Shown here in pieces: positions 2,278-54,985 of a stretch of DNA of 64,000 nt; the first letter of the stretch is position 1, and the number at the start of each line of letters is the position of its first letter. The notes under the pieces are model-generated. The model had not been told where the DNA came from, made no database searches, and worked only from the letters and a program-made list of their open reading frames with translations. The position numbers and the translations under genes are program-made. This DNA is from Bolinopsis microptera (taxonomy: Eukaryota > Ctenophora > Tentaculata > Lobata > Bolinopsidae), in NCBI RefSeq assembly GCF_026151205.1, contig NC_087076.1:22686828-22750827 (forward strand), given 5' to 3'.

Positions 2278-2640
2278 ATTGTTCTCCGATATTGCAATCA
2301 CAATCCACGGACATGACTAAAAATGACTGACACGTCCCGCGCGGCATCAGAAATATGGGAGGAAATCTGGCACCACGATTTGTGGTGCCAGTTTGTGGCC
2401 ATGGATAGAGCCCTCTTTGCCGCCTCCGGCGGTCGCGCGCTACTGCAAGCGAGAGGGCTCTGGTTAGAGCAAGTCACGACGTGATACAAGGTTTTTATAG
2501 TTTTGCAGCCGTACAAAACGGTTTTACATAAACCCTAATCCCAACCCTAACAACCATAATATATAATCCCGAAGCTATCCGATACCCTTACCACAACCCT
2601 AACCCGAGCCCTAGCCCTAAACAATCGAATTCAAAAAAGG
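2278..2640. other. Non-coding spacer with telomere-like CCCTAA fragments
   Basis: Single-copy-looking sequence follows the satellite, including a short hairpin (GGCACCACGATTTGTGGTGCC, about 2369-2390). From 2529 there are degenerate CCCTAA/CCCTAG words ending in AAACAATCGAATTC. The same terminal words recur near 21000-21045, so this is part of a dispersed repeat. No exon was recognised. Confidence 0.5.
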
Positions 2641-5067: not shown

Positions 5068-5980
5068 TAGTCCAGTCATTTATGGAAATGAACCTGCAAA
5101 TTTTCAGATACTCACGAAAATTTGCACAGACCTTCCCAAAGGTATGAATAAACGATTTTCGGTTGGAGACATTTTTTTACCATGGGGAAAACCCAGGAGG
5201 GCTACGCACATATTGACCCAATAACGTAACCGACCCTTTGCTTCTGAAGGTCGTAGAGACTTCAAAATAGGCTTAAACGAAGCCGCATATGCATGTTTAT
5301 ATAGAAGTTATTGATCAACACATGGCCTAAAATCCTTAATTTTCGAGAAATTCGCCAAAAACCATTTTGGGCGAGGCGCTGAGCCAATTTGCTAACTTTT
5401 GATATAATCGTGATAGAGTCCTCGGACAAAGTGCAAAAGAACCGCAATTGGCATATTTATATATGACTTATGAAGAAACATGTGCCTTAAAGTGCTTACT
5501 TTTTCAGTTATTGGCGAAAAACTGATTTTCGGTTCCAGAAATCATGCAAAAATATGGGTATCTGGTAAATTGAGCTATGAAGGCCATAGAGATTTTTGAA
5601 TGAGTGCAAATTGTGCAGAATGGCCATGTTTATATACAACTTATGAAGCAATATGTACCCTAAAATGCTCACTTTTCGAGTTATTTGGGGGAAAACCAGA
5701 GAAAATTTTCACGCAATAGAGCAAAATTGGTTATATCAGCCATTTTTGCCTCCCGTTCTATGTTAATAACTCGAAAAGTCTCTACGACTTTCAGAAGCAA
5801 AGGGTCAGTTACATTATTGGATCAATATGGGCGTGGCCCTCCTGGGTTTTCCCCATGGTCAACAAATGTCTCCAACCGAAAATCGTTTATTCATACCTTC
5901 TGGAAGGTCTGTGCAAAGTTTCGTGAGTATCTGAAAATTTGCAGGTTCATTTCCGTAAATGTCCATTAATAACTGGACTA
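5068..5980. mobile_element. Inverted-repeat (MITE/foldback-like) element
   Basis: The left end TAGTCCAGTCATTTATGG and the right end, whose complement begins TAGTCCAGTTATTAATGG, are inverted copies. The arms extend about 190-205 bp (5068-5254 and 5776-5980) and share the GGAAATGAACCTGC and CCATGGGGAAAACCCAGGAGGG blocks. The interior holds three diverged direct repeats of about 165 bp starting near 5291, 5452 and 5624. No transposase frame is present, so it looks non-autonomous. The class is unknown. Confidence 0.7.
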
Positions 5981-19800: not shown

Positions 19801-22800
19801 TATGGATTTCCTTAAAGCTATCGGAAATTTGACTATGCTTTAGATTTGATTCTGTGATATTGTATTATATTGAATTAATTTATATCATTTAAATAACATT
19901 GAAACTATTGTCTAATTTATCGACATCAAATGAAAATAAACTGTGGTAGTAAACTATGGCTCAGATCATATCTCAAATTGGACATGTTACGTATACAATT
20001 TAGCAAGTAACAGTTTAGATCATGTTTCTAATTGGAAATGTGTCGTATTGAAATCAGGTCACAATTTCGGACAGATGTCGTTTTTTTCTGGTACCCTGAT
20101 TCGGACAGATGTCGCTGTCGGACAGATGTCGCTGTCGGACAGGAGTCGTGTTACCTTCAATTCCACCTCCACTACCCATTAAATCTTACCATCATTTTAA
20201 AGGCAATGGATAGAAATATTTAAAGTAACGTACCTCTACACTTCTTGATGTCGTAAATCCCTGATAAGGTTGCACTGGTAGTGCCACTACTATAAATGCA
20301 ATCCAGCTCTTGTGTGTTTCTGAACTCGGATTTGACTTTGTCTTCAAATGAAGTTCCAGTGTCACATTGGTAGTTGATTTTTTGACCTACCAATGCCGTT
20401 GCAGTTAAAAAGTATGCCTTTGCGTCGGCTTCCAGTGTCACTTCAGATGTGGCACATTCTGAAAACAATAGAAATATAAAAAATTAGAATAAGGTCAAGA
20501 TAAAATTTACAGCTAACAGCTGGCTATTTATTTGCGTTAAGTGGAAGGTATAGACTATTTAAGGCGAGCTCACATATACTTGTAGACATATGTTCAACGA
20601 TTTATCCTAACTAGCAGGAACCCGTTAAATATAACGGTGTCAAGACTCAAGATACTGAAATAATTATTACCTATTTAATTGGCGTTTTTGACACCACTTG
20701 GGGGTCCAAATTTTCGGCTCTAAAATCATTATTCCTCGGCCAATTTTTTATTTTTTCATGCTGATTTGGAGGATATTAAAGCATTTGACCCAGCCAAAAA
20801 AGTTTCAGTTGTATATCTTTTACGGTTTTTGCAGAAAGTTGCGTTAAAGTCGATGCCGTGGTGTCAGTAAAATGGCACAGATATATATATATCGTCTCGC
20901 TTTATATATAGTAAGATTTCATCAAGATAGCTTCGTCAGGACACGATGAACTAACACCTGGTTTAGTCTCTTAGTGGTAAAATGTTAGGGAAGCTATCCA
21001 TAACCATAACCACAGCCCTAACCCTAGCCCTAAACAATCGAATTCGTGTTTTACTACTACTAGCCTGTCACGTGAAGAAAACAGTTATTTGCCCATAACT
21101 CTCCAGGGTATCATTTTTATCCTACGTCATGAGGCCGAGGATGATTCGGAATCAGTGTCCAAAAATACACCGAATTAGATAATGTTTATACCTTAAGAGC
21201 CTTTTCACAAGACTTTTCTTAAAATTTGGGTGAGCAATTTAGTGGGAGCGAGAATATTTACCATTCCAACGATAAACACACCGTAGCACTATATGGTATG
21301 ATACTTAACCTTTCATCACCAGGATATATAACCAGTGTACCGTAGTGTGTTTTGTCGAAGCTGTGTTGCAAAACGTCGACATTTTAATCGTCATTACATT
21401 GACAGTAGTCAAATCATACTGTCAACTTTTCGCTGTTTCCAAAACCTTTCAGGAAAAAAGAAAGTCGTAGAAGGCAATAACTTAATAAGAACTTACGATA
21501 ACACTTTTTGTCACTGTAATTTGTTACAGCGCCACTACATTTAATAGCATCAAATGCGGTGGTACCATCATCACGCCCATACCCTGGTTTGCATTCCAAC
21601 TGAAAAGAAATTCAAATCATTAATTTGCATTTAATCAAATGTTAAATCTTATCCCAATTCCAGACCTTAATTCGAGGTGTCTATCTGCAGATGTAGGGGT
21701 GACGGGGGTCTCTCTGCAGATGGCACCCCTATCAGGCGGGTACAGTTTCATCCAATGTTTATGTTGGACTGTCCAGTTGAAAGATTCTATTTCACTAATT
21801 TAACTAATAAAATGACCATTCATAAATTATGTGATAAATTAAAACTCACGTTTATTTCTGTACCAGCGGGATAGAACGTCTCTGTTTCAAAATCGAGATC
21901 CATCACCACGGTATCGTCAATGGTTGGTTTTGTACACGCGGCTGAAAAATTGCGTTCGTTCAACATTACAGAATGAGAAACCACCAATCGTTTGGACACA
22001 TGCACATTTGAAACTCGAATTAATATAAAATTACACGTGATGCCCATATTAGGCGATGAAATGGTTAGGCACGGCGGTTGGATTTTTCAGATAACTCACC
22101 TTCACATTTTACGAGGTTATACATAGCCATGATATCAGTGGTTTGAGCAACGTCCTGTATACAATTAAAGCTGACACTCGTGAAATCCCCAAAATCTGAA
22201 AAGTCCGTAAGGCTGTCGTCTTTTCTTAACATATACCTGGAACAATTTACAGCTATTTAATCGAATAATATAAATTGTGATTTTCTCATTTTATCCGAAA
22301 CCCACAGTAGCTTTATTTAATTGTTTTAACTAGCAAGATCCCGTTTAGATCTAAAGTCAAGAGACAACAGTATTTATAAGTTTACGATTATAAAACCACT
22401 TGGGGTCAAAATGTGGGGACTTCTTATTACTTGGTCAATTTTTTAGTTCTTCGTACTGTTCAAAAGGCCATAAAAGCATTCGACCCAGTCAAAAAAGTTC
22501 AATTTTCAATTGAGCCGCTAAGGTCATCCCTCTTTTATATCTATGTTATCTAAGTTATCAAGTAAGTATGTTATCAATCATGTCACATGTGATATGGTGA
22601 GTGCTGAAATCTGCCATTTGTTGGCTGTAAATCAGATTTTCACCATTTTTGTGTCAAACCAAAAATAAGTAAACCAGAGATACAACTGTCGACAGACTTA
22701 TTTGAGCGTAATATTTACTTACATTGTATTTGGATTCGAGTCTTGTTTACATTTAAACGTAACTGCCTGCCCCAAGTATATTCTGTCGTAAGAGTCGTAG

Positions 22801-25800
22801 TTACCAGGAACTATTGCCACTTCATCTATTATCGTTTGGGTAAAAGGGTTGTCTGCAAGATCCTTTGCACTGTTGCCCTCCAGTTTGCAGCCTGAAGGTT
22901 GCAATTTAAGTAACATATAAAAAGGAGTCTTAATAAAGATTCTTGTACTATACAAAATATGTACTAGACAAATGGATTAAAATCCCATAACACACAACCC
23001 TTTGCTCGATAAATCACAATTAAGGTGTGAAGTTGGCAAGCACTTACTTGATGTTTGAGCTGCAACACATCTGCTACTGTCACTGACCCAACAACAATGT
23101 ATAAGGTTGCACTTCCCTACAAAAAATCTAAGACAGCTAGCGCGCTCTAGCTGTCTTAGGAGGCAATTTCTAAGACAGCTAGAAATGAGGGTTGATGCGC
23201 GCTAGCTGTCGTAGGTAGCTGTCTTAAAAAACTGAGCTAGCTACGACAGCTAGCAATGACAGTTTAACCCCCATTATAATGAGGGTTTATAGATTTTGCG
23301 TCGCGCAAATAATGCCACGTAAATTGTTGTCATTATCACGTTTATTTATAAAATACAGGTTCGGTTTCCGCGCGCAGAGAATTAATCCGAAATTTTGGCC
23401 TAGTTTTCGAAAAAAATTTGTCAATTTTTAAGGCCCGATATCCTTTATTTTGTTTATAAACTGAGTTGAATTTGCTTTGGTATGATAGGTGGCATATGAA
23501 CTAACCTTTCCAGCCAGTTTTGAATGATTCTAGGTCTCTTTGCCTAACTGGACTAGCGCCTAAATCCATGAATTAGGCCATAAGACCAGTTAGTTCAGGC
23601 GACCGTTTGGGGTCTAATACTACTTTAAATTGAAGTTTAACAGACCAACAGTCCACCTTTAGTCGCTTGGCCTAACTGGACTGACGGGCTACAGTGTGAT
23701 GAGACCCGTACGTGCACCGTTTTACTCACCATGAGCTGACAAAGCATGCTATATGAGCCCGATGACGTGCTTCGACGAGTAAGTGGCCATGCTGACGTGA
23801 TCCATGTCTATATCTCTCATCAATAAAGAGCTCGTTAGCTCACACATACACAAGGGAATCAGCTGTTTTCAGGGGGATCACCAATATTTCTGGACGCTGC
23901 GCTGGATCCAAAAGGACCCCTTTCCTCAACGGCTATATACTTATATAATATGTACTTGACTAATTAATTTGGTCCATGTCATCGAGCTAGGATATAGCAT
24001 GCCCTGTCAGCTCATGTTAAGAGCAATACAGTGCACTTACGGGTCACATCACTCATGCAGTTAGGCCAGGTGACCTCAAGTAGACTATCGGCCTAAAATC
24101 TGCCCTAAGTTAGGAATAGGCCATCCGTCCGTTTGTTCAGTATACTATTACTTGTTAGGCCATTAGTCAAGTTAGGCCAAGCGTCCAGTTAAGCCAACAG
24201 ACCCGGTACCCTCTCTACCATGCCAGATTGATTACAAGTCAGCCCTGGCATACCTATTGCCTCAAATTTCTGTCCCAAATTTGTCTCAATGTGCCAAAAT
24301 CCGGGATTCATGAGTGCGGCAAAAATTGCGACAGAAAGTGGCCGCCAGTCACCGTTGAAATAGTAACACGGTTCAAATACCTGACTGCATGAATTATACT
24401 TCTTTTTGTAAATCAGATACAAGCCACTTTCCATCTATTCATTACTTCCGATACAGTTACCCAAATGATGGAATACAAATTAAAATAACAATCAAATTAT
24501 ATGAAATAATATGAGGGCATTTAAGTTTCAACCAATCCGACAACCAACTATGCTGTCATAATCAGTTTCTGTATTATATGCCATGATTTGAGGATATAGT
24601 GTAAAAACCAATCCGAGGCCGATGATAATAATACGACATTCTTGCTCGTTGCGAAGCTAATTTTCAGTCTTTTGATATTTTGTAATGCTTTAACGAAAAC
24701 GCTTTTATATTCCAATTTTCAAAGTGAATGTTATTTATAAAGAAGTACACAGAAGTTCCGAATCTCAAAATGTCAAACTTTAAATATTATACGTTCTGCA
24801 GATATCGCCAGTCTTGTAATTGGCTCTTAAAAATTGACTGATATTCAAAATATCCAATATAATGTAACTCATTTTTTGTTTTTAAATAATAGTCCTTTTA
24901 TCCTAATAACACAATTTCAGCTGTCGTCGGCGACCATTTGTTCAGAAGATAATCACGTTTCTTGGCTGCCACTCTTTGTAACTTCGTAACCTGGATAAAA
25001 AGGTGGATTAATTGTGGTTTATCTGATTCTGTTCTATCCGCGATTGTTTTATATCAAGACAAGGTGGACACTGAGGTTGATCCAGCGACCAATCAAATAT
25101 GGAGGGCAAGAGCCAAGAGGAAGCAAATGTAAGTAATATTGACAAACCAGTTGTGTCGCTGTCCAGTGTCTTTGCTGCGTGGATTTATCTTGTCGACACA
25201 GCGGTTCGTGTCAAATTGACCACATTTGTGAACGCTGAGGAAGGGAATTCGGATTACAAATTTATAATAGGGGAAGTACGGCTCTTTATAAAGATATGAT
25301 TTAGTAAAAGTAATTGCTGAATCATTAACACAATGAAAATGTGCATTGTATTGTAGATTGTATTTAACTGCAGTCAATGAATAAAAAAAGTCTGGTTCGT
25401 AGCTGAAACTTTTTCCGCCACAGTAAATGTTTTTAAATCGGATAGAATATTTAAAGGGGAAGCCAAGGGGTATTTTTGGGTACTTTGGGGGATTTCATTC
25501 TGGGGGATTTCGAAGGCGTTCATAGGCTATCGCTATCCATTATCGGTATGAAATCTTTTATCTAGATAAACAGATAAAGATTTAGGTTTTATCTAGACAA
25601 AACCGATCATTTTTCTGCTGAAGGCTAAAGCCAAAATGTTATCCAAATTTCATAAAAAACTAATTGTCGACTTTAAACATTGTTTTACCAGTAATCTTGG
25701 CAAATAAAAGTACCACTTCCTTTCTTTGAAAATAGTAAAGCACCAGTTTTCTTCTCCTAGAAAAGTAGTGCACCATGACCATTTCTCCTCAAAACAATAG

Positions 25801-28800
25801 ACCAACGGTTTCCTTCTCCCGAGAACATGAACAGTAGTGCACCAGTTCTCTTCAAAATAGTAGACCAACGGTTTCCTTCTCCCGAGAACAGTAGTGCACC
25901 AGTTCTCTTCAAAACAGTTAAGCATTAAATAATTCAGTAAACCGTTTCCTTATCCTGTGGATAACTTGGAGCAACAGATTCCTTCTCCTGGGAACAATGT
26001 TTCACGCCCAGAACACTTACGGAATACAATTGAGTGCCCTGCCGGTATTTTTGACTCTCGTTAACAGTAACATGCTCGGCCCATGCCCGTCTCCAGAATG
26101 GTTACAAAGGTAAAACGCCAGCACCCTCAAGAGAACAATACCAATAACCTTCTCTGGATTTCTACAGTTCATACAGTTCTACAGTTCCATAGGTATACAA
26201 ATGTAAATAAACCTCTTAAGCACACATCCAAGTAAAATGACATCCAAGGAATGACATAAAGATCTCTTCTCTGTGGGGGTAGTCAAACAATATGATGACC
26301 CTATTAAAGCTGAACGAATAACAACATAGTTGAAGGAATTACAACATGAGTTGGGTAGGGCAAAATGTCAAAGTTACACCCCTCTCATCCTGAGCTGTAT
26401 TTTACTAAACTAAACAGTCACACCCTGCTCCTGTTACACTAAGCTAACAGTTACACCCCGGCCCCTGTGTTACAATAAGCTAACAGTAACACCCCGCCCC
26501 CTTTGTAACACTAAGCTAACAGTTACTTCCTGCCCCCTGTGTTATACCAAGCTAACAGTTATCAGGTGTGCGCAGGATTTTTGAAAGGGCAAAGCGCCGG
26601 CTCTGAGGTTACCGTTGCGAGCAGCCCCCGGAAAATTGTTCGACTGGATTATATACTAAACCAATAGGATATCATACAGAAGGTTCAAAGCAGCAGTTGA
26701 TTAGACAATTTGTTATTAGTAATATTTTGAATTAAAAACTTGGACAAATTAAAATTAAAGATAGCACGAGTTTTAAGTTATTCTGGATATCTCCAGTCTG
26801 AAAAGATGCCGTATGGCTTAGCGTACGCTTTTTGGTACTGGATCGTGATGTCCCATGATTCTGAAATAATGATGTTTTTTGACCCTTCTGATTAAGACTG
26901 AGGCTGATCCTCAGAGCTTTCCAATTATATTAATCTGCCTATCTCAAATCTCTTTTGAGCCTCATCATACCCACTCAACTATGAGGATTGGCTTCCTAGA
27001 TTTAGGAGCAGCCAACCCATGGAAATTATATATGCACAAGGCATGTGTATCGACCTAATTAATTCGAACCTACTATATTCGTTTAAAAATAAAACTTTTG
27101 CATCATGTCATTAACGCAAATGTTTGTGAAAATGTTTATAAAATTGTTTATAAAATTATTTTGTTGCTCTGTAGAAGGCAATTAAAAAAAATTCTGGGTC
27201 AGCATTTCAAAAAGGGCCAGGGGCGGGGGCCGGCGCGGGGGGCGATCGCCTACATCGCCACCCGCCTGCGAACCAGGCCTCCCACCCTCAAATTCCCTAA
27301 AATTCTAGGTTTTAAAGGTGGTTTTCTTGGTTTTCAAACCCCTTAATTCAAGGTTTTCAGATAGCCATTTTCAAGGTTTTCAAGGTTTTTTAAGACGAAT
27401 ATGTATGTTTGCACTACGAAAACTTGTTAATTTTATCTATTTTCTCAAAACTAATGAATGAAATAATATAACCTGGACTAGGTTAGGATTGCTCAAAACA
27501 TAAATGAGGGGACTGGTGGGGCAAAGGATATGATTTTAAGCAAGAAAACTGCCGGAGGCGAAATTTATAGTTGAAATTCAAGGTTTTCAAGCGTTTTTGT
27601 GAAAATCCAAGGTTTGCAAGGTTTTTGATTCAAAATATCAGAAATCAAGGTTCTCAAGGGTTTCAAGGTTGGCTGCTGCCACACGCCCATGACAGTTACA
27701 CCCCGGCATCTATGTTACAGTTAGCTAACAGTTTCACCCCCCGGCCCTGTGTTCAGATAGCTGTATGCAATGTCTCTCAAAACTTGATTTTATAAGCTGT
27801 TCCTGATAGAATGATATCCTATCAGGAGCTCCCATGGAAAAATATTGTTCCTAGCCAAAGTTGCCCCATAAAGTTATCAGCTTTTCAAATAAAATAATCA
27901 AAAAAAGGCCTATTTTAAAATTTTGATGAGACATAATTTTTCTAAATGGTCCTTAGAACATATCCTGAAAGTTTCAAGGTGATTGCTCAAAAATGTAGGA
28001 GAAGATGGAATTTTAGTTTTCAAGGCGCGCCTAATTAAAACCGCTTGCGCAAATACACTTACATGTAATGAGCGATGACCTTTTGACGGTCATACCCTTT
28101 GACTAGGAACAATAATTTTCCTTAGCAGCAATGATTCTAAACATTTCAATGCTCACGTTTGACTAATTAAGCTAATGATTGATCTGAAAAGAAACATATT
28201 GTATGAAGTAAAGTCACTGGTAATTTGAACAGCTAAGAGCGTAAAATGGGGTTGGCTAATTAACTCAACAACCAGAAGCCTGAGGACTAAATAACAAGCC
28301 TCTACCCCACTAATATCTGAATTTTTGAACATCCAGTTACCCAAGTTTAGATTATATTCCTAACTATAATCAGCAGTAGAGTTATTTTCATTTTCTCTAT
28401 TATCACCACAGGCTAGAGCATAATTTAAGTAGGTTTTGGTCTATTAAATCGACAGCCAGCATGATGCCTGAGGAAGTTTAAACTAGGCTTTACCCCACTT
28501 AATATGATCATTTTACTACTCAATTTACGCCCCTAACTTCAATCAGAAAACCGAGTCATTTTGATTTTAAGTGCAGTGGTCGCCACATGCTCAAACTGCA
28601 GCATAAATTTTGGGTATTATGAGGACCTTTTTCACAGATGATTTCCAATGCCCATTAAGGCATTCCCAATAATACCCCTTGGTTCCTCCATAGTTCTAAC
28701 CATATAATGGCCAAACCATATGTTCTAACATAATTATTTTAATGACCAAACCTTAGTTGATTACATCTTTCATCCCGAATTGAAGCTTGACAGGATATTC

Positions 28801-31800
28801 CGCCTTTTTTCTGCCTGCTGAAATTCTTGTTACTCCTTCGAAGCTTGCAAAGCGTGTATATGTCACTTTGTGTCTAAAGTTCCTGGTCCCTGAAGGATTT
28901 TGATTGAGCAGCAGTTTAAATACGAATTTTTTAGAATCTAAAGTCCAATGATTCACAGATAATTAAGAAAACAGAAATTACAAAGTAAAAAGCAGTTATT
29001 TAGACCTTTATGGAAGCTGTGAATGTTGTGCAATAATCTTTGTGATGTTCTTATCATAATCTCACTATTCTAACACTCCTCAGCATATCAACTCTTTCAA
29101 CCTGAACAGAAATGTAAAATAAAAAGCTTTTTCGTGGCACACCTGTGCATTTTGAGTTTGTGCCACAATATTATAAAAGTTAAAATTATTATTTATATTT
29201 CATATGTAACAATCAAAGCGAGATATTACTTTTAGGTAATTAGTGGTTATCTCCCAAAAGGATTCTCACCAGTATATAATTTGAATAATCAAATTGAATA
29301 ATCAAATCTGAAATCAAACACAAAATACCTTTCTTTTACAGAGCAAATGTGTGACTTTCGTGGTGAATCATATGAAAACTTTCCCAAGTCTGCTATCCTT
29401 GTTACCAACTGACCATATCATAGCATAGACAAACCGTATGAAACATCCTAGATTATTGTAGTTTGAGAAGTCAAAACATGAATAATTAGCTCACACCTCT
29501 GAAGAGGCAATGAAGGAATAAGAATATCACGCATCGAATGGACCAAAGTGCATCAACTTTATATCAAAAGTGTATCAAAGTATCAACTTACTGCCAACGA
29601 TACAGTAGTTCTTTACAAAAAAATTCGTTTTTAGATAGAAGGTAATTCTTGGCAGACGACATTGCAAAACTAGACAAGAAAACCAAAACTTTCATGATAA
29701 ACTACTATTTACTGGCCAGTCTGAACTAACAAAATAGTCTGAACTAACAAAATAAACCTCGCTGGTCGATTAGGAGGATGAGAGAGACAACAATAACATG
29801 CACCTGAAAAAAACAGCAGGTTTGTGGCAGGTATAATGAGTGGCGAGAAGGTTAGCGCTCGATTCATAGGTGATTTTAAATTATATTATAGTTGGTGAGC
29901 CGCGCGCCAAATGAAAAAAAATTTCATAAATGATGAATCCAAAATCTAAATTTAGTTATATTCATAAGTCATTTGAAAATACCAAATACTGTCACAGAGT
30001 ATTAGAAATAAAATTAAACAAACAAATCAAAATTTGTACTTAACCCAAGTACAACGGAAATCATTTTAAAATCATCTAAACTAAACTTTTGATTTTGAGC
30101 CTGCAGCTTACTTTGTTAACTTAAAATAAATTTAAAATGCTAAACAATTTTTCGCGGCGGTCATCAAGATAAATTCGAATTTTTAATCTAAAATAAGCCC
30201 CCCCCCCCCCCCTCCCCTATTGTTTAGGAAGTTGACAGACATAATAAAAATCACATAAACATAGTGCCAAAAATGAAAATAATTTAGCAAATCTAAAATA
30301 ATATATTAATCCACATTACATTTATATTTAAAAAACATAAAAGTAATTGTATGAAATGAATTAACATGATTTTGTAAAATGAAAAAATAATTGCCGAATT
30401 CGTTTTCGGAATTAATTAAACTCAGCTTGTACATTTGTTTTCGTGTGGCTCAGATAATATTATTTTAAAATGGCATGGCTTGCATTATAATTATATAAAA
30501 GTGTTTGATAGCAAAATCATTTCAATGACAACTATAAACTTTTCTTAAACTAGCGGGGTTGATTTTGAGAGTTTTCAATTTTGGCTTTGAAAAAAGTGAC
30601 ATGTGACAGCTCCGTTTAAATTGTTTAGCAATATTATATGATATAATATAAAAATTGAAAAAAGGCAAAATAAACGATGGAGCCATGCTGCAGTATGCAG
30701 TTGCATTTATTAAAAATAATATTGTTGTTTATTTATTTGAATTTTAATATTCTTAAAAATGAATACAATTCAATTTGCAATTCATATTCAATATTCATGA
30801 TTTATGAATATGAAACTATTTTTCATTTTTTTTCATTTGGCGCGCGGCTCACCAACTATAATATAATTTAAAATCACCTATGAATCGAGCGCTAACCTTC
30901 TCGCCACTCATTTTACCTGCCACAAACCTGCTGTTTTTTCAGGTGCATGTTATTGTTGTCTCTCTCATCCTCCAATCGACCAGCCGAGGTTTATTTTGTT
31001 AGTTCAGACTATTTTGTTAGTTCAGACTGCCAGTAAATAGTAGTTATCATGAAAGTTTTGGTTTTCTTGTCTAGTTTTGAAATGTCGTTCTGCCAAGAAT
31101 TAGCCTTCTATCGTAAAACGAATTTTTTTGTAAAGAACTACTGTATCGTTTGCAGTGGTATTCTTGTGGCAGTAAGTTGATACTTTGATACACTTTTGAT
31201 ATAAAGTTGATGCACTTTGATCCATTCGATGCGTGATATTCTTATTCCTTCATTGCCTCTTCAGAGGTGTGAGCTAATTATTCATGTTTTGACTTCTCAA
31301 ACTACAATAATCTAGGATGTTTCATACGGTTGTCTATGCTATGATATGGTCAGTTGGTAACAAGGATAGCAGACTTGGGAAAGTTTTCATATGATTCACC
31401 ACGAAAGTCACACATTTGCTCTGTAAAAGAAAGGTATTTTGTTGTTTGATTTCAGATTTGATTATTCAATTTGATTATTCAAATTATATACTGGTGAGAA
31501 TCCTTTTGGGAGGATAACCACTAATTACCTAAAAGTAATATCTCGCTTTGATTGTTACATATGAAATATAAATAATAATTTTAACTTTTATAATATTGTG
31601 GCACAAAACTCAAAATGCACAGGTGTGCCACGAAAAAGCTTTTTATTTTACATTTCTGTTCAGGTTGAAAGAGTTGATATGCTGAGGAGTGTTAGAATGG
31701 AGATTATGATAAGAACATCACAAAGATGTATTGCACAACATTCACAGCTTCATAAAGGTCTAAATAACTGCTTTTTACTTGTAATTCTGTTTTCTTAATT

Positions 31801-34800
31801 ATCTGTGAATACATTTGGACTTTAGATTCTAAAAAATTCGTATTTAACTGCTGCTCAATCAAAATCCTTCAGGGACCAGGAACTTAAGACACAAAGTGAC
31901 ATATACACGCTTTGCAACTTCGAAGGAGTAGACAAGAATTTCAGCAGCAGAAAAAAGGCGGAATATCCTGTCAAGCTTCAATTCGGATTGAAAGATGAAA
32001 TCAACTAAGGTTTGTCATTAAAATAATTATGTTAGAACATATGGTTTGGCCATTATATGGTTAGAACTATGGGGGAAGCCAAGGGGTATTATTGGGAATG
32101 CCTTAATGGGCATTGGAAATCATCTGTGAAAAAGGTCCTCATAATTACCCAAAATTATGCTGCAGTTTGATGCATGTTGCGACCACTGCACTTAAAATCA
32201 AAATGACTCGGTTTCTGATTGAAGTTAGGGGCTTAAATTGAGTAGTAAAATGATCATATTAAGTGGGGTAAAGCCTAGGTTAAACTTCCTCAGGCATCAT
32301 GCTGGGCTGTCGATTTAATAGACCAAAACCTACTTAAATTATGCTCTAGCCTGTGGTGATAATAGAGAAAATGAAAATAACTCTACTGCTGATTATAGTT
32401 AGGAATATAATCTAAACTTGGGTAACTGGATGTTCAAAATTCAGATTATTAGTGGGGTAGAGCTTGGTTTTTAAGTCCTCAGGCTTCTGGTTGTTGAGTT
32501 AATTAGCCAAACCCCATTTTTACGCTCTTAGCTGTTCAAATTACCAGTGACTTTACTTCATACAATATGTTTCTTTTCAGATCAATCATTAGCTTAATTA
32601 GTCAAACGTGAGCATTGAAATGTTTAGAATCATTGCTGCTAAGGAAAATTATTGTTCCTAGTCAAGGGTATGACCGGTCAAAGGTCATCGCTCATTACAT
32701 GTAATTGTATTGCGCAAGCGGTTTTCAATAGCGCGCCTTGAAAACTAAAATTCCATCTTCTCCTACATTTTTTGAGCAATCACCTTGAAACTTTCAGGAT
32801 ATGTTCTAAGGACCATTTAGAAAAATTATGTCTCATCAAAATTTTAAAATAGGCCTTTTTTTGATTATTTTATTTGAAAAGCTGATAACTTTATGGGGCA
32901 ACTTTGGCTAGGAACAATATTTTCCATGGGAGCTCCTGATAGATATCATTCTATCAGGAACAGCTATAAAATCAATTTTGAGAGACATTGCATACAGCTA
33001 TCTGAAACACAGGGGCCGGGGTGAAACTGTTAGCTAACTGTAACATAGATGCCGGGGTGTAACTGTCATGGGCGTGTGCAGCAGCCAACCTTGAAACCCT
33101 TGAGAACCTTGATTTCTGATATTTTGAATCAAAAACCTTGCAAACCTTGGATTTTCACAAAAACGCTTGAAAACCTTGAATTTCAACTATAAATTTCGCC
33201 TCCGGCAGTTTTCTTGCTTAAAATCATATCCTTTGCCCCACCAGTCCCCTCATTTATGTTTTGAGCAATCCTAACCTAGTCCAGGTTATATTATTTCATT
33301 CATTAGTTTTGAGAAAATAGATAAAATTAACAAGTTTTCGTAGTGCAAACATACATATTCGTCTTAAAAAACCTTGAAAACCTTGAAAATGGCTATCTGA
33401 AAACCTTGAATTAAGGGTTTGAAACCAAGAAAACCACCTTTAAAACCTAGAATTTTAGGGAATTTGAGGGTGGGAGGCCTGGTTCGCAGGCGGGTGGCGA
33501 TGTAGGCGATCGCCCCCCGCGCCGGCCCCCGCCCCTGGCCCTTTTTGAAATGCTGACCCAGAATTTTTTTTAATTGCCTTCTACAGAGCAACAAAATAAT
33601 TTTATAAACAATTTTATAAACATTTTCACAAACATTTGCGTTAATGACATGATGCAAAAGTTTTATTTTTAAACGAATATAGTAGGTTCGAATTAATTAG
33701 GTCGATACACATGCCTTGTGCATATATAATTTCCATGGGTTGGCTGCTCCTAAATCTAGGAAGCCAATCCTCATAGTTGAGTGGGTATGATGAGGCTCAA
33801 AAGAGATTTGAGATAGGCAGATTAATATAATTGGAAAGCTCTGAGGATCAGCCTCAGTCTTAATCAGAAGGGTCAAAAAACATCATTATTTCAGAATCAT
33901 GGGACATCACGATCCAGTACCAAAAAGCGTACGCTAAGCCATACGGCATCTTTTCAGACTGGAGATATCCAGAATAACTTAAAACTCGTGCTATCTTTAA
34001 TTTTAATTTGTCCAATGTTTTAAATTCAAAATATTACTAATAACAAATTGTCTAATCAACTGCTGCTTTGAACCTTCTGTATTGATATCCTATTGGTTTA
34101 GTATATAATCCAGTCGAACAATTTTCCGGGGGCTGCTCGCAACGGTAACCTCAGAGCCGGCGCTTTGCCCTTTCAAAAATCCTGCGCACACCTGATAACT
34201 GTTAGCTTGGTATAACACAGGGGGCAGGATGTAACTGTTAGCTTAGTGTTACAAAGGGGGCGGGGTGTTACTGTTAGCTTATTGTAACACAGGGGCCGGG
34301 GTGTAACTGTTAGCTTAGTGTAACAGGAGCAGGGTGTGACTGTTAGTTTAGTAAAATACAGCTCAGGATGAGAGGGGTGTAACTTTGACATTTTGCCCTA
34401 CCCAACTCATGTTGTAATTCCTTCAACTATGTTGTTATTCGTTCAGCTTTAATAGGGTCATCATATTGTTTGACTACCCCACAGAGAAGAGATCTTTATG
34501 TCATTCCTTGGATGTCATTTTACTTGGATGTGTGCTTAAGAGGTTTATTTACATTTGTATACCTATGGAACTGTAGAACTGTATGAACTGTAGAAATCCA
34601 GAGAAGGTTATTGGTATTGTTCTCTTGAGGGTGCTGGCGTTTTACCTTTGTAACCATTCTGGAGACGGGCATGGGCACGAGCATGTTACTGTTAACGAGA
34701 GTCAAAAATACCGGCAGGGCACTCAATTGTATTCCGTAAGTGTTCTGGGCGTGAAACATTGTTCCCAGGAGAAGGAATCTGTTGCTCCAAGTTATCCACA

Positions 34801-37800
34801 GGATAAGGAAACGGTTTACTGAATTATTTAATGCTTAACTGTTTTGAAGAGAACTGGTGCACTACTGTTCTCGGAGAAGGAAACCGTTGGTCTACTATTT
34901 TGAAGAGAACTGGTGCACTACTGTTCATGTTCTCGGGAGAAGGAAACCGTTGGTCTATTGTTTTGAGGAGAAATGGTCATGGTGCACTACTTTTCTTAGG
35001 AGAAGAAAACTGGTGCTTTACTATTTTCAAAAGAAAGGAAGTGGTACTTTTATTTGCCAAGATTACTGGTAAAACAATGTTTAAAGTCGACAATTAGTTT
35101 TTTATGAAATTTGGATAACATTTTGGCTTTAGCCTTCAGCAGAAAAATGATCGGTTTTGTCTAGATAAAACCTAAATCTTTATCTGTTTATCTAGATAAA
35201 AGATTTCATACCGATAATGGATAGCGATAGCCTATGAACGCCTTCGAAATCCCCCAGAATGAAATCCCCCAAAGTACCCAAAAATACCCCTTGGCTTCCC
35301 CTTTAAATATTCTATCCGATTTAAAAACATTTACTGTGGCGGAAAAAGTTTCAGCTACGAACCAGACTTTTTTATTCATTGACTGCAGTTAAATACAATC
35401 TACAATACAATGCACATTTTCATTGTGTTAATGATTCAGCAATTACTTTTACTAAATCATATCTTTATAAAGAGCCGTACTTCCCCTATTATAAATTTGT
35501 AATCCGAATTCCCTTCCTCAGCGTTCACAAATGTGGTCAATTTGACACGAACCGCTGTGTCGACAAGATAAATCCACGCAGCAAAGACACTGGACAGCGA
35601 CACAACTGGTTTGTCAATATTACTTACATTTGCTTCCTCTTGGCTCTTGCCCTCCATATTTGATTGGTCGCTGGATCAACCTCAGTGTCCACCTTGTCTT
35701 GATATAAAACAATCGCGGATAGAACAGAATCAGATAAACCACAATTAATCCACCTTTTTATCCAGGTTACGAAGTTACAAAGAGTGGCAGCCAAGAAACG
35801 TGATTATCTTCTGAACAAATGGTCGCCGACGACAGCTGAAATTGTGTTATTAGGATAAAAGGACTATTATTTAAAAACAAAAAATGAGTTACATTATATT
35901 GGATATTTTGAATATCAGTCAATTTTTAAGAGCCAATTACAAGACTGGCGATATCTGCAGAACGTATAATATTTAAAGTTTGACATTTTGAGATTCGGAA
36001 CTTCTGTGTACTTCTTTATAAATAACATTCACTTTGAAAATTGGAATATAAAAGCGTTTTCGTTAAAGCATTACAAAATATCAAAAGACTGAAAATTAGC
36101 TTCGCAACGAGCAAGAATGTCGTATTATTATCATCGGCCTCGGATTGGTTTTTACACTATATCCTCAAATCATGGCATATAATACAGAAACTGATTATGA
36201 CAGCATAGTTGGTTGTCGGATTGGTTGAAACTTAAATGCCCTCATATTATTTCATATAATTTGATTGTTATTTTAATTTGTATTCCATCATTTGGGTAAC
36301 TGTATCGGAAGTAATGAATAGATGGAAAGTGGCTTGTATCTGATTTACAAAAAGAAGTATAATTCATGCAGTCAGGTATTTGAAACCGTGTTACTATTTC
36401 AACGGTGACTGGCGGCCACTTTCTGTCGCAATTTTTGCCGCACTCATGAATCCCGGATTTTGGCACATTGAGACAAATTTGGGACAGAAATTTGAGGCAA
36501 TAGGTATGCCAGGGCTGACTTGTAATCAATCTGGCATGGTAGAGAGGGTACCGGGTCTGTTGGCTTAACTGGACGCTTGGCCTAACTTGACTAATGGCCT
36601 AACAAGTAATAGTATACTGAACAAACGGACGGATGGCCTATTCCTAACTTAGGGCAGATTTTAGGCCGATAGTCTACTTGAGGTCACCTGGCCTAACTGC
36701 ATGAGTGATGTGACCCGTAAGTGCACTGTATTGCTCTTAACATGAGCTGACAGGGCATGCTATATCCTAGCTCGATGACATGGACCAAATTAATTAGTCA
36801 AGTACATATTATATAAGTATATAGCCGTTGAGGAAAGGGTCCTTTTGGATCCAGCGCAGCGTCCAGAAATATTGGTGATCCCCCTGAAAACAGCTGATTC
36901 CCTTGTGTATGTGTGAGCTAACGAGCTCTTTATTGATGAGAGATATAGACATGGATCACGTCAGCATGGCCACTTACTCGTCGAAGCACGTCATCGGGCT
37001 CATATAGCATGCTTTGTCAGCTCATGGTGAGTAAAACGGTGCACGTACGGGTCTCATCACACTGTAGCCCGTCAGTCCAGTTAGGCCAAGCGACTAAAGG
37101 TGGACTGTTGGTCTGTTAAACTTCAATTTAAAGTAGTATTAGACCCCAAACGGTCGCCTGAACTAACTGGTCTTATGGCCTAATTCATGGATTTAGGCGC
37201 TAGTCCAGTTAGGCAAAGAGACCTAGAATCATTCAAAACTGGCTGGAAAGGTTAGTTCATATGCCACCTATCATACCAAAGCAAATTCAACTCAGTTTAT
37301 AAACAAAATAAAGGATATCGGGCCTTAAAAATTGACAAATTTTTTTCGAAAACTAGGCCAAAATTTCGGATTAATTCTCTGCGCGCGGAAACCGAACCTG
37401 TATTTTATAAATAAACGTGATAATGACAACAATTTACGTGGCATTATTTGCGCGACGCAAAATCTATAAACCCTCATTATAATGGGGGTTAAACTGTCAT
37501 TGCTAGCTGTCGTAGCTAGCTCAGTTTTTTAAGACAGCTACCTACGACAGCTAGCGCGCATCAACCCTCATTTCTAGCTGTCTTAGAAATTGCCTCCTAA
37601 GACAGCTAGAGCGCGCTAGCTGTCTTAGATTTTTTGTAGGGTTGGATTCCTCTGTTACAGGGTCTGCATGGGCCGGCATTAAACAATCAATAGTGTTTAT
37701 CCCACTCCTATCAGCAGGGCACTTTTCATCTCCCGATGAGGCATCGGATGCATATTGGTCTGAAATAAAGGGAATATTTATAAAAGCAATTAAATCACGG

Positions 37801-44506: not shown

Positions 44507-45456
44507 CAGGGTCAGGGTCAGGGTCAGGGTCAGGGTCAGGGTCAGGGTCAGGGTCAGGGTCAGGGTCAGGGTCAGGGTCAGGGTCAGGGTCAGGGTCAGG
44601 GTCAGGGTCAGGGTCAGGGTCAGGGTCAGGGTCAGGGTCAGGGTCAGGGTCAGGGTCAGGGTCAGGGTCAGGGTCAGGGTCAGGGTCAGGGTCAGGGTCA
44701 GGGTCAGGGTCAGGGTCAGGGTCAGGGTCAGGGTCAGGGTCAGGGTCAGGGTCAGGGTCAGGGTCAGGGTCAGGGTCAGGGTCAGGGTCAGGGTCAGGGT
44801 CAGGGTCAGGGTCAGGGTCAGGGTCAGGGTCAGGGTCAGGGTCAGGGTCAGGGTCAGGGTCAGGGTCAGGGTCAGGGTCAGGGTCAGGGTCAGGGTCAGG
44901 GTCAGGGTCAGGGTCAGGGTCAGGGTCAGGGTCAGGGTCAGGGTCAGGGTCAGGGTCAGGGTCAGGGTCAGGGTCAGGGTCAGGGTCAGGGTCAGGGTCA
45001 GGGTCAGGGTCAGGGTCAGGGTCAGGGTCAGGGTCAGGGTCAGGGTCAGGGTCAGGGTCAGGGTCAGGGTCAGGGTCAGGGTCAGGGTCAGGGTCAGGGT
45101 CAGGGTCAGGGTCAGGGTCAGGGTCAGGGTCAGGGTCAGGGTCAGGGTCAGGGTCAGGGTCAGGGTCAGGGTCAGGGTCAGGGTCAGGGTCAGGGTCAGG
45201 GTCAGGGTCAGGGTCAGGGTCAGGGTCAGGGTCAGGGTCAGGGTCAGGGTCAGGGTCAGGGTCAGGGTCAGGGTCAGGGTCAGGGTCAGGGTCAGGGTCA
45301 GGGTCAGGGTCAGGGTCAGGGTCAGGGTCAGGGTCAGGGTCAGGGTCAGGGTCAGGGTCAGGGTCAGGGTCAGGGTCAGGGTCAGGGTCAGGGTCAGGGT
45401 CAGGGTCAGGGTCAGGGTCAGGGTCAGGGTCAGGGTCCGGGTCAGGGTCAGGGTCA
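44507..45456. repeat. (TCAGGG)n hexanucleotide array, about 158 copies
   Basis: About 950 bp of perfect GGGTCA repeats, with one visible variant (GGGTCCGGG near 45434). TCAGGG differs from the metazoan telomere unit TTAGGG by one base. Open frames in all phases (VR, DP, TL dipeptide repeats) are artefacts of the six-base period. Confidence 0.97.
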
Positions 45457-45639
45457 GTGCCACGACTGATCCAGCCATTGTCGTGCGAAGTACCTACAGC
45501 TTTACACGTCACGAGGCATACTGTTCCTACTCAAGTATTGTATCCTACAAATCTTCTCTCCAGATACTATTTATTCAGGCAATACTATCGAGAATATATC
45601 TATTTATATTTAAAACTTGACGAAAAAATCCATAATTTC

Positions 45640-48423: not shown

Positions 48424-48833
48424 GTTCCGCGACAGTGCCGCCATAGTGCCACGAGACTGCCACGAGAGTGCCACGACAGTGCCACGATAGTGCCACGACG
48501 GTGCCACGATAGTGCCACGACAGTGCCACGACAGTGCCACGATAGTGCCATGAAAGTGCCATGACAGTGCCACCACAGTGCCACGACAGTGCCATGATAG
48601 TGCCACGACAGTGCCACGACAGTGCCACGACAGTGCCACGACAGTGCCACGACAGTGCCACGATAGTGCCACGACAGTGCCACGACAGTGCCACGACAGT
48701 GCCACGACAGTGCCACGACAGTGCCACGACAGTGCCACGATAGTGCCACGACAGTGCCGCGACAGTGCCACGACAGTGCCACGACAGTGCCACAACAGTG
48801 CCACGACAGTGCCACGACAGTGCCACGACTTTA
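48424..48833. repeat. 11-bp minisatellite (CAGTGCCACGA)n
   Basis: About 37 units of CAGTGCCACGA with variants (TAGTGCCACGA, CAGTGCCATGA). Degenerate inverse units also occur at 46540-46615 and 48100-48165 within the duplicated blocks, so the minisatellite probably grew from that sequence. The MALSWHCRGTVV-type frames are shadows. Confidence 0.95.
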
Positions 48834-49689: not shown

Positions 49690-50085
49690 TGTAATTATCA
49701 ATGAAACAAGAAATTTCAATGAAACAAGAAATTTAATTTTCGCACATTTTACAGAATAAAAAGATGTAAAACAATTCATAAAATATAATGTCCATTTGGT
49801 GTATGACTTTTTGAGTTTTTGTCCTTGACTGCTAGTTTGGTTTTGGAAGGACAGGTTACTAACGGGACAAGGAATGCGCGCGTGCCTGAAAGCTTTTGCA
49901 AACACCGAAACGCTATAAGTTTAGTTAACTTAAGTTTTTAAAGACAAGGCTCATATTAGGACTACAATAACTGAAAAAGATTTTTAGTGGACATTAGGGC
50001 CGGTTGCAATTTGCATTATTATTATATAGATTGCAGTCTTGTTGTGATAAAAAGTCTACACTAAAACATGCTTTAGTTTATATTG
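49690..50085. repeat. Inverted-repeat partner of 54620-54985
   Basis: CAATGAAACAAGAAATTTCA, the CTTGACTGCTAGTTTGGTTT region and TGCAGTCTTGTTGTGATAAA are mirrored in 54620-54985. The two copies are about 4.5 kb apart and point outward to the same tip sequence. Confidence 0.7.
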
Positions 50086-51347
50086 TGTAGTTCAAGGATA
50101 TGAAATGCAGCTTGAAGTTGAACCCAAGCTATTATGTTCATAAACATAAATAAAAATTCGGTGGAATGACAGGCTGAGCGCAGGAGCGCTACCCAGCGAA
50201 GAAATTGTAGATTGTGAGTTATTTCGAAAAGTGTGATTTTGGGCTGAATAAAAGATCGCAGCTTTATAACTTTGCAAATTAATTTGGTTTTGATGACTCC
50301 ATAGATGAATGCAGGTTCAAGGTTGTAACACACGTGCAGAGCAACAAGCTTTACGTCACGTGCGACGACAAACAGGCTATTGAAAAATTATCACCTCTAG
50401 TAACACCGCCAGTCAGTAAGGTTTTTTGGTTATGTACATTGTTTGACCATTGTTAATGATAAGGCCCGGCGCGCGCTACTTCGTAGCACTTGTGACTTGC
50501 CATCGGGCCAAAATTTCGAGAAGAAAGCGGCGCGCGCTACTTCGAAGAAATTTAGACTAGTAACATCCGTCAATAGGTTATGATAATACAAACTGTAAAG
50601 CATAAAGTAATTTAGCACGCTTGTAGGAGGACCAACCACTCAAAATTTAAAAGTAAATAAGTTCCAATCGGATTTTTTACCTAGCTGGCTCGCTAATCCA
50701 TGTGCGCGGCGCTCTTTTCATGCTTACTTATCCTAATCATATTGCATACATTTATTAAAAATGACAGAGTCCTTAATGTTATGTGGAAAAGATTACATTC
50801 ACACCACTGGTATTTAGTACTGCAGGAGGAATGGCGTTTTAGGCTTCACAATTCCTGAAATATCTTTGATCTTGCTGAAAAGATCACCTTTAATAATTAA
50901 GGCCAAAGAAAGCTCCGTCAAGGATCGTAAGCTGAAAGCTCTAGCAAGTCTCTAAAGTATGTTATATACCCTATATAAAAAAAACCGTGCTTAAGGAAAA
51001 CATGGGGTTACAGAAAGGTATATCAATATTTAGGAAATCTAGAGGAAATGATATGTGACACTGTGATGTGATGTCATTTGTCAGGCAGAGACTATGCTTG
51101 AATTTGCTCAGAACCCTGCCAGGATATATAAAAAATAAAAATGAACCTGTATAATCTCTATCATATCAGGGGTTACAGAGGTACCATAACTCTTTCATCT
51201 GCGGCAATAAATGATTTGCACCTAATCAATACTGCTAGTATATAGTAAATCTTAAAAGGTCAGTGAGTGCTTGTTCGGTGAGGTTCTGAACTGGTTGTTG
51301 TTGTGATGTGAGCTTGTACATTTGCGAATTTTTAAAAAAAAAAGCGC
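50086..51347. other. Spacer before the LINE
   Basis: Contains paired GGCGCGCGCTACTTCG words at about 50466 and 50528. No endonuclease domain of the LINE was found here, so the element is truncated at its 5' side. Confidence 0.45.
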
Positions 51348-54000: not shown

Positions 54001-54619
54001 GTCTTGGAAGAAAGGTCCATTGGATAAATGCAAATTTAGACATACGCAAAGTTTAACACCCGGAGAGAGCTTGTTCCAATACAGTCTAGCTCTGTCTAGA
54101 AGAAAAGAACTCCTTAATTTATTAGCACACTTACTATGTAGCACTCTTATTATTTGATTTAATCGATAAATGGGCTCCTGTTCACTTATTTTATTATCAC
54201 TCAAATATAGTGTCAGAATTCAGATGTCTCTGAAAACACAAGCTGTTTGAAGATTTTACAAAGAAATACAGGTTAAAGATACTGGTCGATAATTATATTA
54301 TAGAGTTAGACAAAGAATACATTTTAAAAAGTGGCTTTTTAACATAATAAATCTCTAATGGAATACTATTAGCCAGCACTCATCCCATATACAGGTCTAA
54401 TAAATTCAAATTATTGGTAACCAAAGTAGCATATATTGACAGCAAGCTTATCATGCAAATATACAATAGATAATCTATATTCTGTATGTGCACTAGATAA
54501 ACATGAATATTGAACAGTGGTTTTGTTCTCAGTTATTCTCGATTCTTCAGAAGACAATAGTCTGTTTTTCATCAGCTCTCCAATATCCATCTTAAAGTTG
54601 CATCTTATATCCTCAAACT

Positions 54620-54985
54620 ACACAATTTAAACTTAGGCATATATAGTGTAGACTTTCTGTCACAACAAGACTGTAACCCATAGTAACAAACACAAACAGA
54701 ACCCCTAACGTCTGCTAACAATTTTCTTCTGATCCTCATATGAGCCCTGTCTCTAAAAACTCAACTGAACTAGCGTTTTGGTGTGTGCACGCACATTCCC
54801 TGCCCCGTTAGTTACCTGTCCCTTCAAAATCAAACTAACAGTCAAGGACAAAAAGTCATACACCAAATGAGCATTACATTTTTATAAATTGTTTTACATC
54901 TCTTTATTCTGTAAAATGTGCTAAAAATTAAATTTCTTGTTTCATTGAAAAATTTCTTGTTTCATTGTTTCCACAGCATGGGCTA
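54620..54985. repeat. Inverted-repeat partner of 49690-50085
   Basis: TAGTGTAGACTTTCTGTCAC, CAACAAGACTGTAAC, AGTCAAGGACAAAAAGTC and AAATTTCTTGTTTCATTG (twice) mirror the other arm. It ends about 115 bp before the stop of the GPCR gene. Confidence 0.7.

What the first reader, a model, noticed from the sequence alone, without database searches (positions are those of the whole stretch)
23115..37641. 14.5-kb near-perfect palindrome inside a coding exon
Two arms of about 6.8 kb mirror each other around an unmirrored spacer of 0.87 kb. Arm coordinates sum to about 60756 along their whole length. The unit interrupts an exon precisely enough that removing it (keeping one TT) restores a trefoil reading frame. 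Such long arms are unusual for a DNA transposon, and no known transposase was visible. It could be a new foldback-type element, or a cargo-free derivative of a larger one.
Basis: partly seen in the sequence, partly recalled or inferred. Interest (0 to 1): 0.9.

Follow-up and report, generated by a model that had tools for sequence, protein, structure and literature searches.

The report
Giant palindromic jumping DNA element
A comb-jelly genome carries 14.5-kb mirror-image DNA units that jump as a whole, can cut a gene on landing and keep their two halves matched, while coding for no recognisable protein of their own.

Summary
The palindrome is real. Arms 23115-29922 and 30825-37641 mirror each other around a 902-bp spacer. 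It is a mobile element, not an assembly fold: three other loci on other contigs carry the same arms and spacer. All 6 two-tip copies read carry exactly 2 bp of flanking duplication (one lies in symmetric flanks). Two uninterrupted paralogues of the host exon hold a single TT at the insertion point; one equals the rejoined flanks over 300 of 300 bases.

Of 47 two-against-six substitution columns among eight arms, 45 are shared by both arms of one copy; none groups left arms or right arms across copies. The arms of a copy are homogenised together, most simply by arm-to-arm gene conversion.

No transposase was found. Diverged relatives are palindromes too, so the architecture seems old. An intact gene inside one relative looked like the transposase but belongs to a nested element. 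Best reading: a giant non-autonomous foldback-type DNA transposon family, superfamily unassigned, probably in Bolinopsis microptera. The host exon's trefoil label is unconfirmed.

The parts
23115..37641 (.). whole palindromic element, 14527 bp
   Evidence: self-BLAST; same unit at C8, C4, C6; empty-site paralogues
23115..29922 (+). left arm, 6808 bp
30825..37641 (-). right arm, 6817 bp, mirror of the left arm
29923..30824 (.). unmirrored AT-rich spacer, 902 bp, found in all four full copies in the same relation to the arms
   Evidence: 25.7% GC
23113..23114 (.). left copy of the 2-bp target duplication TT
   Evidence: paralogues with one TT
37642..37643 (.). right copy of the 2-bp target duplication TT
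   Evidence: paralogues with one TT
23115..23251 (+). tip CCCTACAAAAAATCTAAGA plus six subterminal AGCTGTCTTA repeats (at most 1 mismatch, both orientations); mirrored at the other end; putative transposase-binding region
37505..37641 (-). mirror copy of the tip and subterminal repeats
25778..25918 (+). internal tandem array, 63-bp period, mirrored at 34838-34977
26404..26561 (+). internal tandem array, 36-bp period, mirrored at 34196-34352
24480..25320 (+). arm block best conserved in diverged relatives (79% to C3, about 71-72% to more distant copies); no shared reading frame
23048..23114 (-). 3' part of the interrupted host exon (donor site judged by eye)
37644..37759 (-). 5' part of the interrupted host exon (acceptor site judged by eye)

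Best explanation
One copy of a non-autonomous, foldback-type DNA transposon family in a ctenophore genome; the whole 14.5-kb palindrome is the mobile unit. SHOWN: shared tips, 2-bp target duplications, other copies and empty sites. INFERRED: a transposase supplied from elsewhere binds the clustered AGCTGTCTTA repeats at the tips, cuts beside CCCTAC and joins the element to a target opened with a 2-bp stagger (TT or TG/CA in the four full copies and in C3). SHOWN: substitutions specific to one copy sit in both of its arms. INFERRED: the arms pair with each other and are kept alike by gene conversion, so the palindrome persists while subfamilies diverge.
For: Same arms and spacer at C8:3405544-3421203, C4:7541144-7556020 and, with nested inserts, C6:15773077-15809467. 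2-bp duplications in 6 of 6 two-tip copies read, no third matching base (the C12 mini-copy lies in inverted-symmetric flanks, and is not independent). Left and right flank matches overlap by exactly 2 bases at two paralogues; one equals the rejoined flanks over 300 of 300 bases. 45 of 47 two-against-six columns unite the two arms of one copy. Six subterminal repeats in the first 137 bp, 0 in 200 random 400-bp windows drawn from about 24.0-29.4 kb. Longest stop-free frame 133 codons; 10 of the element's long frames give no Pfam family above cut-off.
Against: No autonomous partner or transposase was found, so movement in trans is inferred. The spacer differs by 1.1-1.7% between copies against 0.2-0.8% in the arms, which conversion between the arms of one copy alone does not predict; exchange between copies, or constraint, may also act. 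One arm pair of different copies (C5R-C8L, 13 differences in 6653) is closer than the two arms of C4 (17). The C5 arms differ at 45 columns, which I ascribe to consensus noise without proof.
Confidence: 0.8

Rival explanations
1. The arms are made identical anew at each transposition, because the moving or repaired form is a single arm or hairpin that is copied into a palindrome, rather than by gene conversion in the chromosome.
For: It also gives copy-specific substitutions in both arms and arms that are nearly identical at birth; the C5 outer arms differ by 0 substitutions in 2634 columns.
Against: The 902-bp spacer is kept in the same relation to the arms in all four copies, so both arms and the spacer would have to be recovered each time; no such intermediate is known to me for this kind of element (recalled).
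Confidence: 0.15
2. The element is autonomous: a multi-exon transposase gene lies in each arm, in two inverted copies, and was missed because its exons are short.
For: Another transposon of this genome splits a 754-aa gene into 11 exons of 110-378 bp; a 0.8-kb arm block is conserved between subfamilies.
Against: No shared frame in the conserved block; no Pfam family above its cut-off for 10 frames of the element and 10 of relatives; no trace of the one transposase-like protein found.
Confidence: 0.08
3. Assembly artefact: a fold or palindromic chimeric read.
For: The left arm holds a stretch of clustered private differences, which looks like poor consensus. No reads were available.
Against: Several loci with different flanks, each with a 2-bp duplication, a common spacer and copy-specific substitutions; empty-site paralogues.
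Confidence: 0.02
4. The 11-exon gene found between the arms of the C3 relative is the palindrome's own transposase, and the window element is its deletion derivative.
For: The gene has an intact 754-codon frame in C3 and sits between the arms of a palindromic relative.
Against: It belongs to an element with its own ends (TAGTGTGGTTGG) and an 8-bp duplication CTATTAAC at C3; 10 listed loci hold it at 98-100% identity, 6 of them full length, whereas the C3 tip is found at 4 loci.
Confidence: 0.02

Closest known systems
Galileo of Drosophila (P superfamily, foldback-like); longest copy 112 of D. willistoni (PMC4168063, section read)
   Same: Almost only two very long inverted arms, no transposase in the long-armed copy, internal tandem repeats, flanking target duplications. 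Copy 112 is 9021 bp with arms of 4246 and 4680 bp.
   Different: Galileo duplicates 7 or 8 bp (abstract passage), here 2 bp. Galileo has a known P-type transposase; none is known here. Here the arms are 6.8 kb and four copies share the same giant palindrome.
Tetris of D. virilis (PMC4079207, passages)
   Same: Non-autonomous foldback element with internal tandem repeats in the arms; the paper mentions possible homogenisation of its repeats within copies.
   Different: Arms up to 1735 bp; 8-10 bp target duplications.
Gene-converting palindromes of mammalian Y chromosomes (recalled, no call)
   Same: Long, nearly identical arms around a short spacer, kept alike by arm-to-arm conversion.
   Different: Those are fixed chromosomal structures with genes; this unit moves as a whole.

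Membership tests
Foldback-type transposon (structural class) | Long inverted arms making up most of the element, often with internal tandem repeats | tested here: met
Foldback-type transposon (structural class) | Dispersed copies with flanking target duplications | tested here: met
P superfamily (Galileo) | 7-8 bp target duplication | tested here: not met
   2 bp in 6 of 6 two-tip copies read
P superfamily (Galileo) | P-type transposase in an autonomous partner | tested here: inconclusive
   no transposase found; no autonomous partner known
Mutator (most foldback elements, as stated in PMC4079207) | 8-10 bp target duplication | tested here: not met
Tc1/mariner (definition recalled) | TA target duplication | tested here: not met
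   TT, TG, CA, CA, TT; only the C12 mini-copy has TA
piggyBac and Kolobok (definition recalled) | TTAA target | tested here: not met
CACTA / EnSpm (definition recalled) | Ends beginning CACTA/CACTG | tested here: not met
   ends are CCCTAC
ISL2EU and other superfamilies with 2-bp duplications (definition recalled) | 2-bp duplication together with the matching transposase | tested here: inconclusive
   2-bp duplication met; no transposase to compare
MITE | Short, usually under 600 bp, high copy number (passage of PMC3573991) | tested here: not met
   14.5 kb; 16 zero-mismatch tips at 11 loci; the shortest relative seen is 1.1 kb

The most novel reading that the evidence does not exclude
A deep, so far undescribed lineage of DNA transposons (CCCTAC ends, 2-bp target duplication) whose normal form is a giant palindrome: pairing and conversion between the arms is part of how the element survives, each arm serving as the repair template of the other.
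Probability: 0.25. Interest if true: 0.75.

Novelty: new variant of a known kind. Interest (0 to 1): 0.52.

Why it matters
Foldback elements are known, but the longest arms I found in print are 4.2-4.7 kb (one Galileo copy; most papers were seen only as listings). Here a 14.5-kb palindrome exists in four closely similar copies with 2-bp target duplications and an empty-site paralogue, so transposition of the whole unit can be tested. The eight arms form a natural experiment on concerted evolution within a mobile element. Copies this long and this alike are also likely sites of cruciform breakage and of inversions between copies (inference), in an animal phylum for which two searches for transposon papers returned 4 and 1 papers.

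Tried and rejected
1) The 11-exon gene in the C3 relative as the palindrome's transposase: it looked intact and well placed and I noted it as the candidate. Searches showed a separate nested element with its own ends and an 8-bp duplication, so I dropped it. Decayed exons of the same protein family 16 kb inside the C11 tip are dropped as evidence for the same reason.

2) The 14.4-kb 'core' of C6 as an ancestral interior: it is a nested element with ends CACTCCTGCGCG/CGCGGCAGTG and a 5-bp duplication AGATT.

3) The protein family of the nested element: the model from two sequences had mean pLDDT 32.6, so no fold search was run. Pfam, NCBIfam and the PDB gave 0 matches at E<=10. Three protein searches found only two relatives; the IMG/VR scan found none.

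4) Conserved arm block as coding: no shared frame seen. Frames of the element and of relatives in Pfam: only weak matches below cut-off, best E 0.013 to a domain of unknown function (20 frames given, not all that exist). An earlier Pfam call on 10 frames from fetched loci gave only retrotransposon domains above cut-off.

5) The trefoil label: not confirmed.

6) Tip pattern with up to 2 mismatches: 61 hits against 57 for the reversed control pattern, so only the 16 zero-mismatch hits were used.

7) Ends of the more distant palindromes (C10:5600009, C7:17123903, C11:18204975, C13:9062374, C1:17047836) were not read; one 8-kb piece of the C10 one was fetched and shows no CCCTAC.

8) Papers: 'giant palindrome' with transposon terms gave 0 papers; other searches were made; one of 10 was unused. 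Seen: PMC4168063 (passages and section 6), PMC3573991, PMC4079207 and PMC12221973 (passages); all others only as search listings.
Full report
WHERE IT IS. The window lies on contig C5 of a 264.7-Mb, 232-contig assembly. A gene of the same genome is 99% identical, over 76% of the query, to a protein listed for Bolinopsis microptera (P0001), a lobate ctenophore, so the genome is most likely that species or a very close one. This rests on one protein.

THE OBSERVATION. Self-BLAST confirms the palindrome: 23115-29922 mirrors 37641-30825, with a 902-bp spacer. Over 23115-25750 the arms differ by no substitution in 2634 columns and by 4 indels. The remaining differences lie mostly in the left arm at about 25.7-29.9 kb, as clustered private substitutions and short indels. 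I read this as consensus noise, so the true identity is probably higher than 98.5%; no reads were available to test it. GC of both arms is 37.9%, of the left flank 37.5%, of the spacer 25.7%.

OTHER COPIES. The pattern CCCTACAAAWWWTCTAAGA has 16 zero-mismatch matches at 11 loci: five loci with both tips (C5, C8, C4, C6 and a 1.1-kb mini-palindrome on C12) and six with one. With up to two mismatches, hits are no more than for the reversed control pattern, so only the exact ones count. BLAST of fetched loci shows the complete palindrome at C8:3405544-3421203, C4:7541144-7556020 and C6:15773077-15809467, the last enlarged by nested insertions, one of them 14,435 bp with its own inverted ends and a 5-bp duplication. 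All four carry the same spacer in the same relation to the arms.

INSERTION. The bases beside the tips are TT/TT (C5), TG/TG (C8), CA/CA (C4), CA/CA (C6), TT/TT (C3 relative) and TA/TA (C12 mini-copy). That is 6 of 6 two-tip copies read, none with a third matching base; the C12 copy sits in inverted-symmetric flanks, so its match is not independent. Searching the genome with each flank of the window element found paralogues of the host locus at C5:21.476 Mb and C8:4.903 Mb in which left and right flank matches overlap by exactly two bases. The C5 paralogue equals the window flanks joined with a single TT over all 300 bases compared; the C8 paralogue also holds one TT and keeps the frame with an in-frame gap. 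A third paralogue (C5:21.571 Mb) also lacks the element: its two flank matches lie 16 bases apart, but the junction itself was not read. These filled-versus-empty pairs establish a precise insertion with a 2-bp duplication. The host exon is probably coding (open across the junction, splice sites plausible by eye, frame kept in the paralogues), but its 'trefoil' nature is not supported by Pfam or the PDB.

ARMS EVOLVE TOGETHER. Eight arms were aligned; 6653 of 8762 columns have no gap and only these were counted. Among two-allele columns of two against six, 45 of 47 group the two arms of one copy (C4 30, C5 6, C6 6, C8 3); the other two group C5 left with C8 right and C8 left with C4 right; none groups left arms or right arms across copies. 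Single-arm changes: 40 in the noisy C5 left arm, 31 in the other seven together; five further variable columns have other patterns, two of which unite C4 left with both C6 arms against C4 right. Differences between the arms of one copy: C6 7, C8 9, C4 17, C5 45; between arms of different copies, C5 left arm excluded, 13 to 54. If the arms had been inherited separately, substitutions specific to one copy would not sit in both arms. Gene conversion between arms is the simplest cause; re-formation of arms at each move is the rival. A result that conversion between the arms of one copy does not predict by itself: the spacer differs by 1.1-1.7% between copies while the arms differ by 0.2-0.8%.

DEEPER RELATIVES. 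The C3 locus holds a diverged palindrome: arms of about 6.3 kb, 97.8% alike in the main block, spacer about 0.28 kb once a nested element is set aside. Its left tip shares the first 16 bases (the right tip lacks one of them) but has a different subterminal repeat. C12:8764173 is an older palindrome whose right arm is truncated; 1.9 kb of mirrored arm is 82% alike, and its pieces are 86-91% similar to C3. The arm block 24480-25320 and the inner arm detect further inverted pairs on C10 (5.60-5.61 Mb), C7 (17.13 Mb), C11 (18.20-18.22 Mb) and C13 (9.06-9.08 Mb), with roughly 0.6 kb between the innermost matches on C10 and C7; these were not read to their ends. The palindromic form therefore seems to be the usual state of the lineage rather than an accident of one copy.

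WHAT MOVES IT. The element has no stop-free frame longer than 133 codons; ten of its long frames give one sub-threshold Pfam match (E 0.1), and it has no similarity to the one transposase-like protein found. The first 137 bp hold six copies of AGCTGTCTTA (at most one mismatch), against none in 200 random 400-bp arm windows, as expected of transposase-binding sites. I conclude that it is non-autonomous and moved in trans by an enzyme not identified here. The first candidate, an intact 11-exon gene between the arms of C3, is part of a separate nested transposon.

COMPARISON. The nearest described structures are Galileo and Tetris. Galileo's longest D. willistoni copy has arms of 4.2 and 4.7 kb and no transposase (PMC4168063), so giant arms are not without precedent. 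The 2-bp target duplication separates this family from both (7-8 bp and 8-10 bp), and the ends and targets do not fit Tc1/mariner, TTAA or CACTA families (definitions recalled). I file it as a foldback-type transposon by structure and leave the superfamily open. Longer arms may be in print outside the library searched.

VERDICT. Real, mobile, and recently inserted on present evidence (flanks identical to an empty paralogue over 300 bases, nearly identical arms); structurally extreme; a new variant of a known kind. The open and interesting part is whether arm-to-arm conversion is a survival strategy of the lineage.

Noticed in passing
C3:1932342-1945870 (L024-L026) and C1:10490889-10502022 (L034, L031, L035): A separate DNA transposon with ends TAGTGTGGTTGG, inverted arms of 2-3 kb with CTGT arrays, an 8-bp duplication CTATTAAC at C3 and an intact 11-exon, 754-codon frame without any Pfam match; 10 listed loci at 98-100% identity, 6 full length. 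Possibly active and of an undescribed family; ends resemble hAT (recalled).
   Followed up: partly
window 25750-29922: Left arm holds clustered private substitutions and short indels absent from the other seven arms: probably a poorly polished stretch of the assembly.
   Followed up: partly
C6:15782268-15796702 (L014, L015): 14,435-bp nested element in the spacer of the C6 copy, ends CACTCCTGCGCG/CGCGGCAGTG, flanked by AGATT on both sides.
   Followed up: partly
C12:9228812-9229907 (L022:813-1908): A 1.1-kb mini-palindrome with the same tips, whose flanks are themselves inverted copies of each other.
   Followed up: no
window 22520-23114 and 37642-38240; C5:21475440-21476634, C5:21571197-21572092, C8:4902987-4904190: The host gene lies in a duplicated family; three paralogous loci lack the element.
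   Followed up: partly
window 1-2278, 44507-45457, 48424-48829: Long tandem arrays outside the element, seen as ladders of direct self-matches.
   Followed up: no
window 5077-5262 / 5776-5961 and 49699-50120 / 54588-54967: Two further inverted repeat pairs outside the element, 93.5% and about 77% identical.
   Followed up: no
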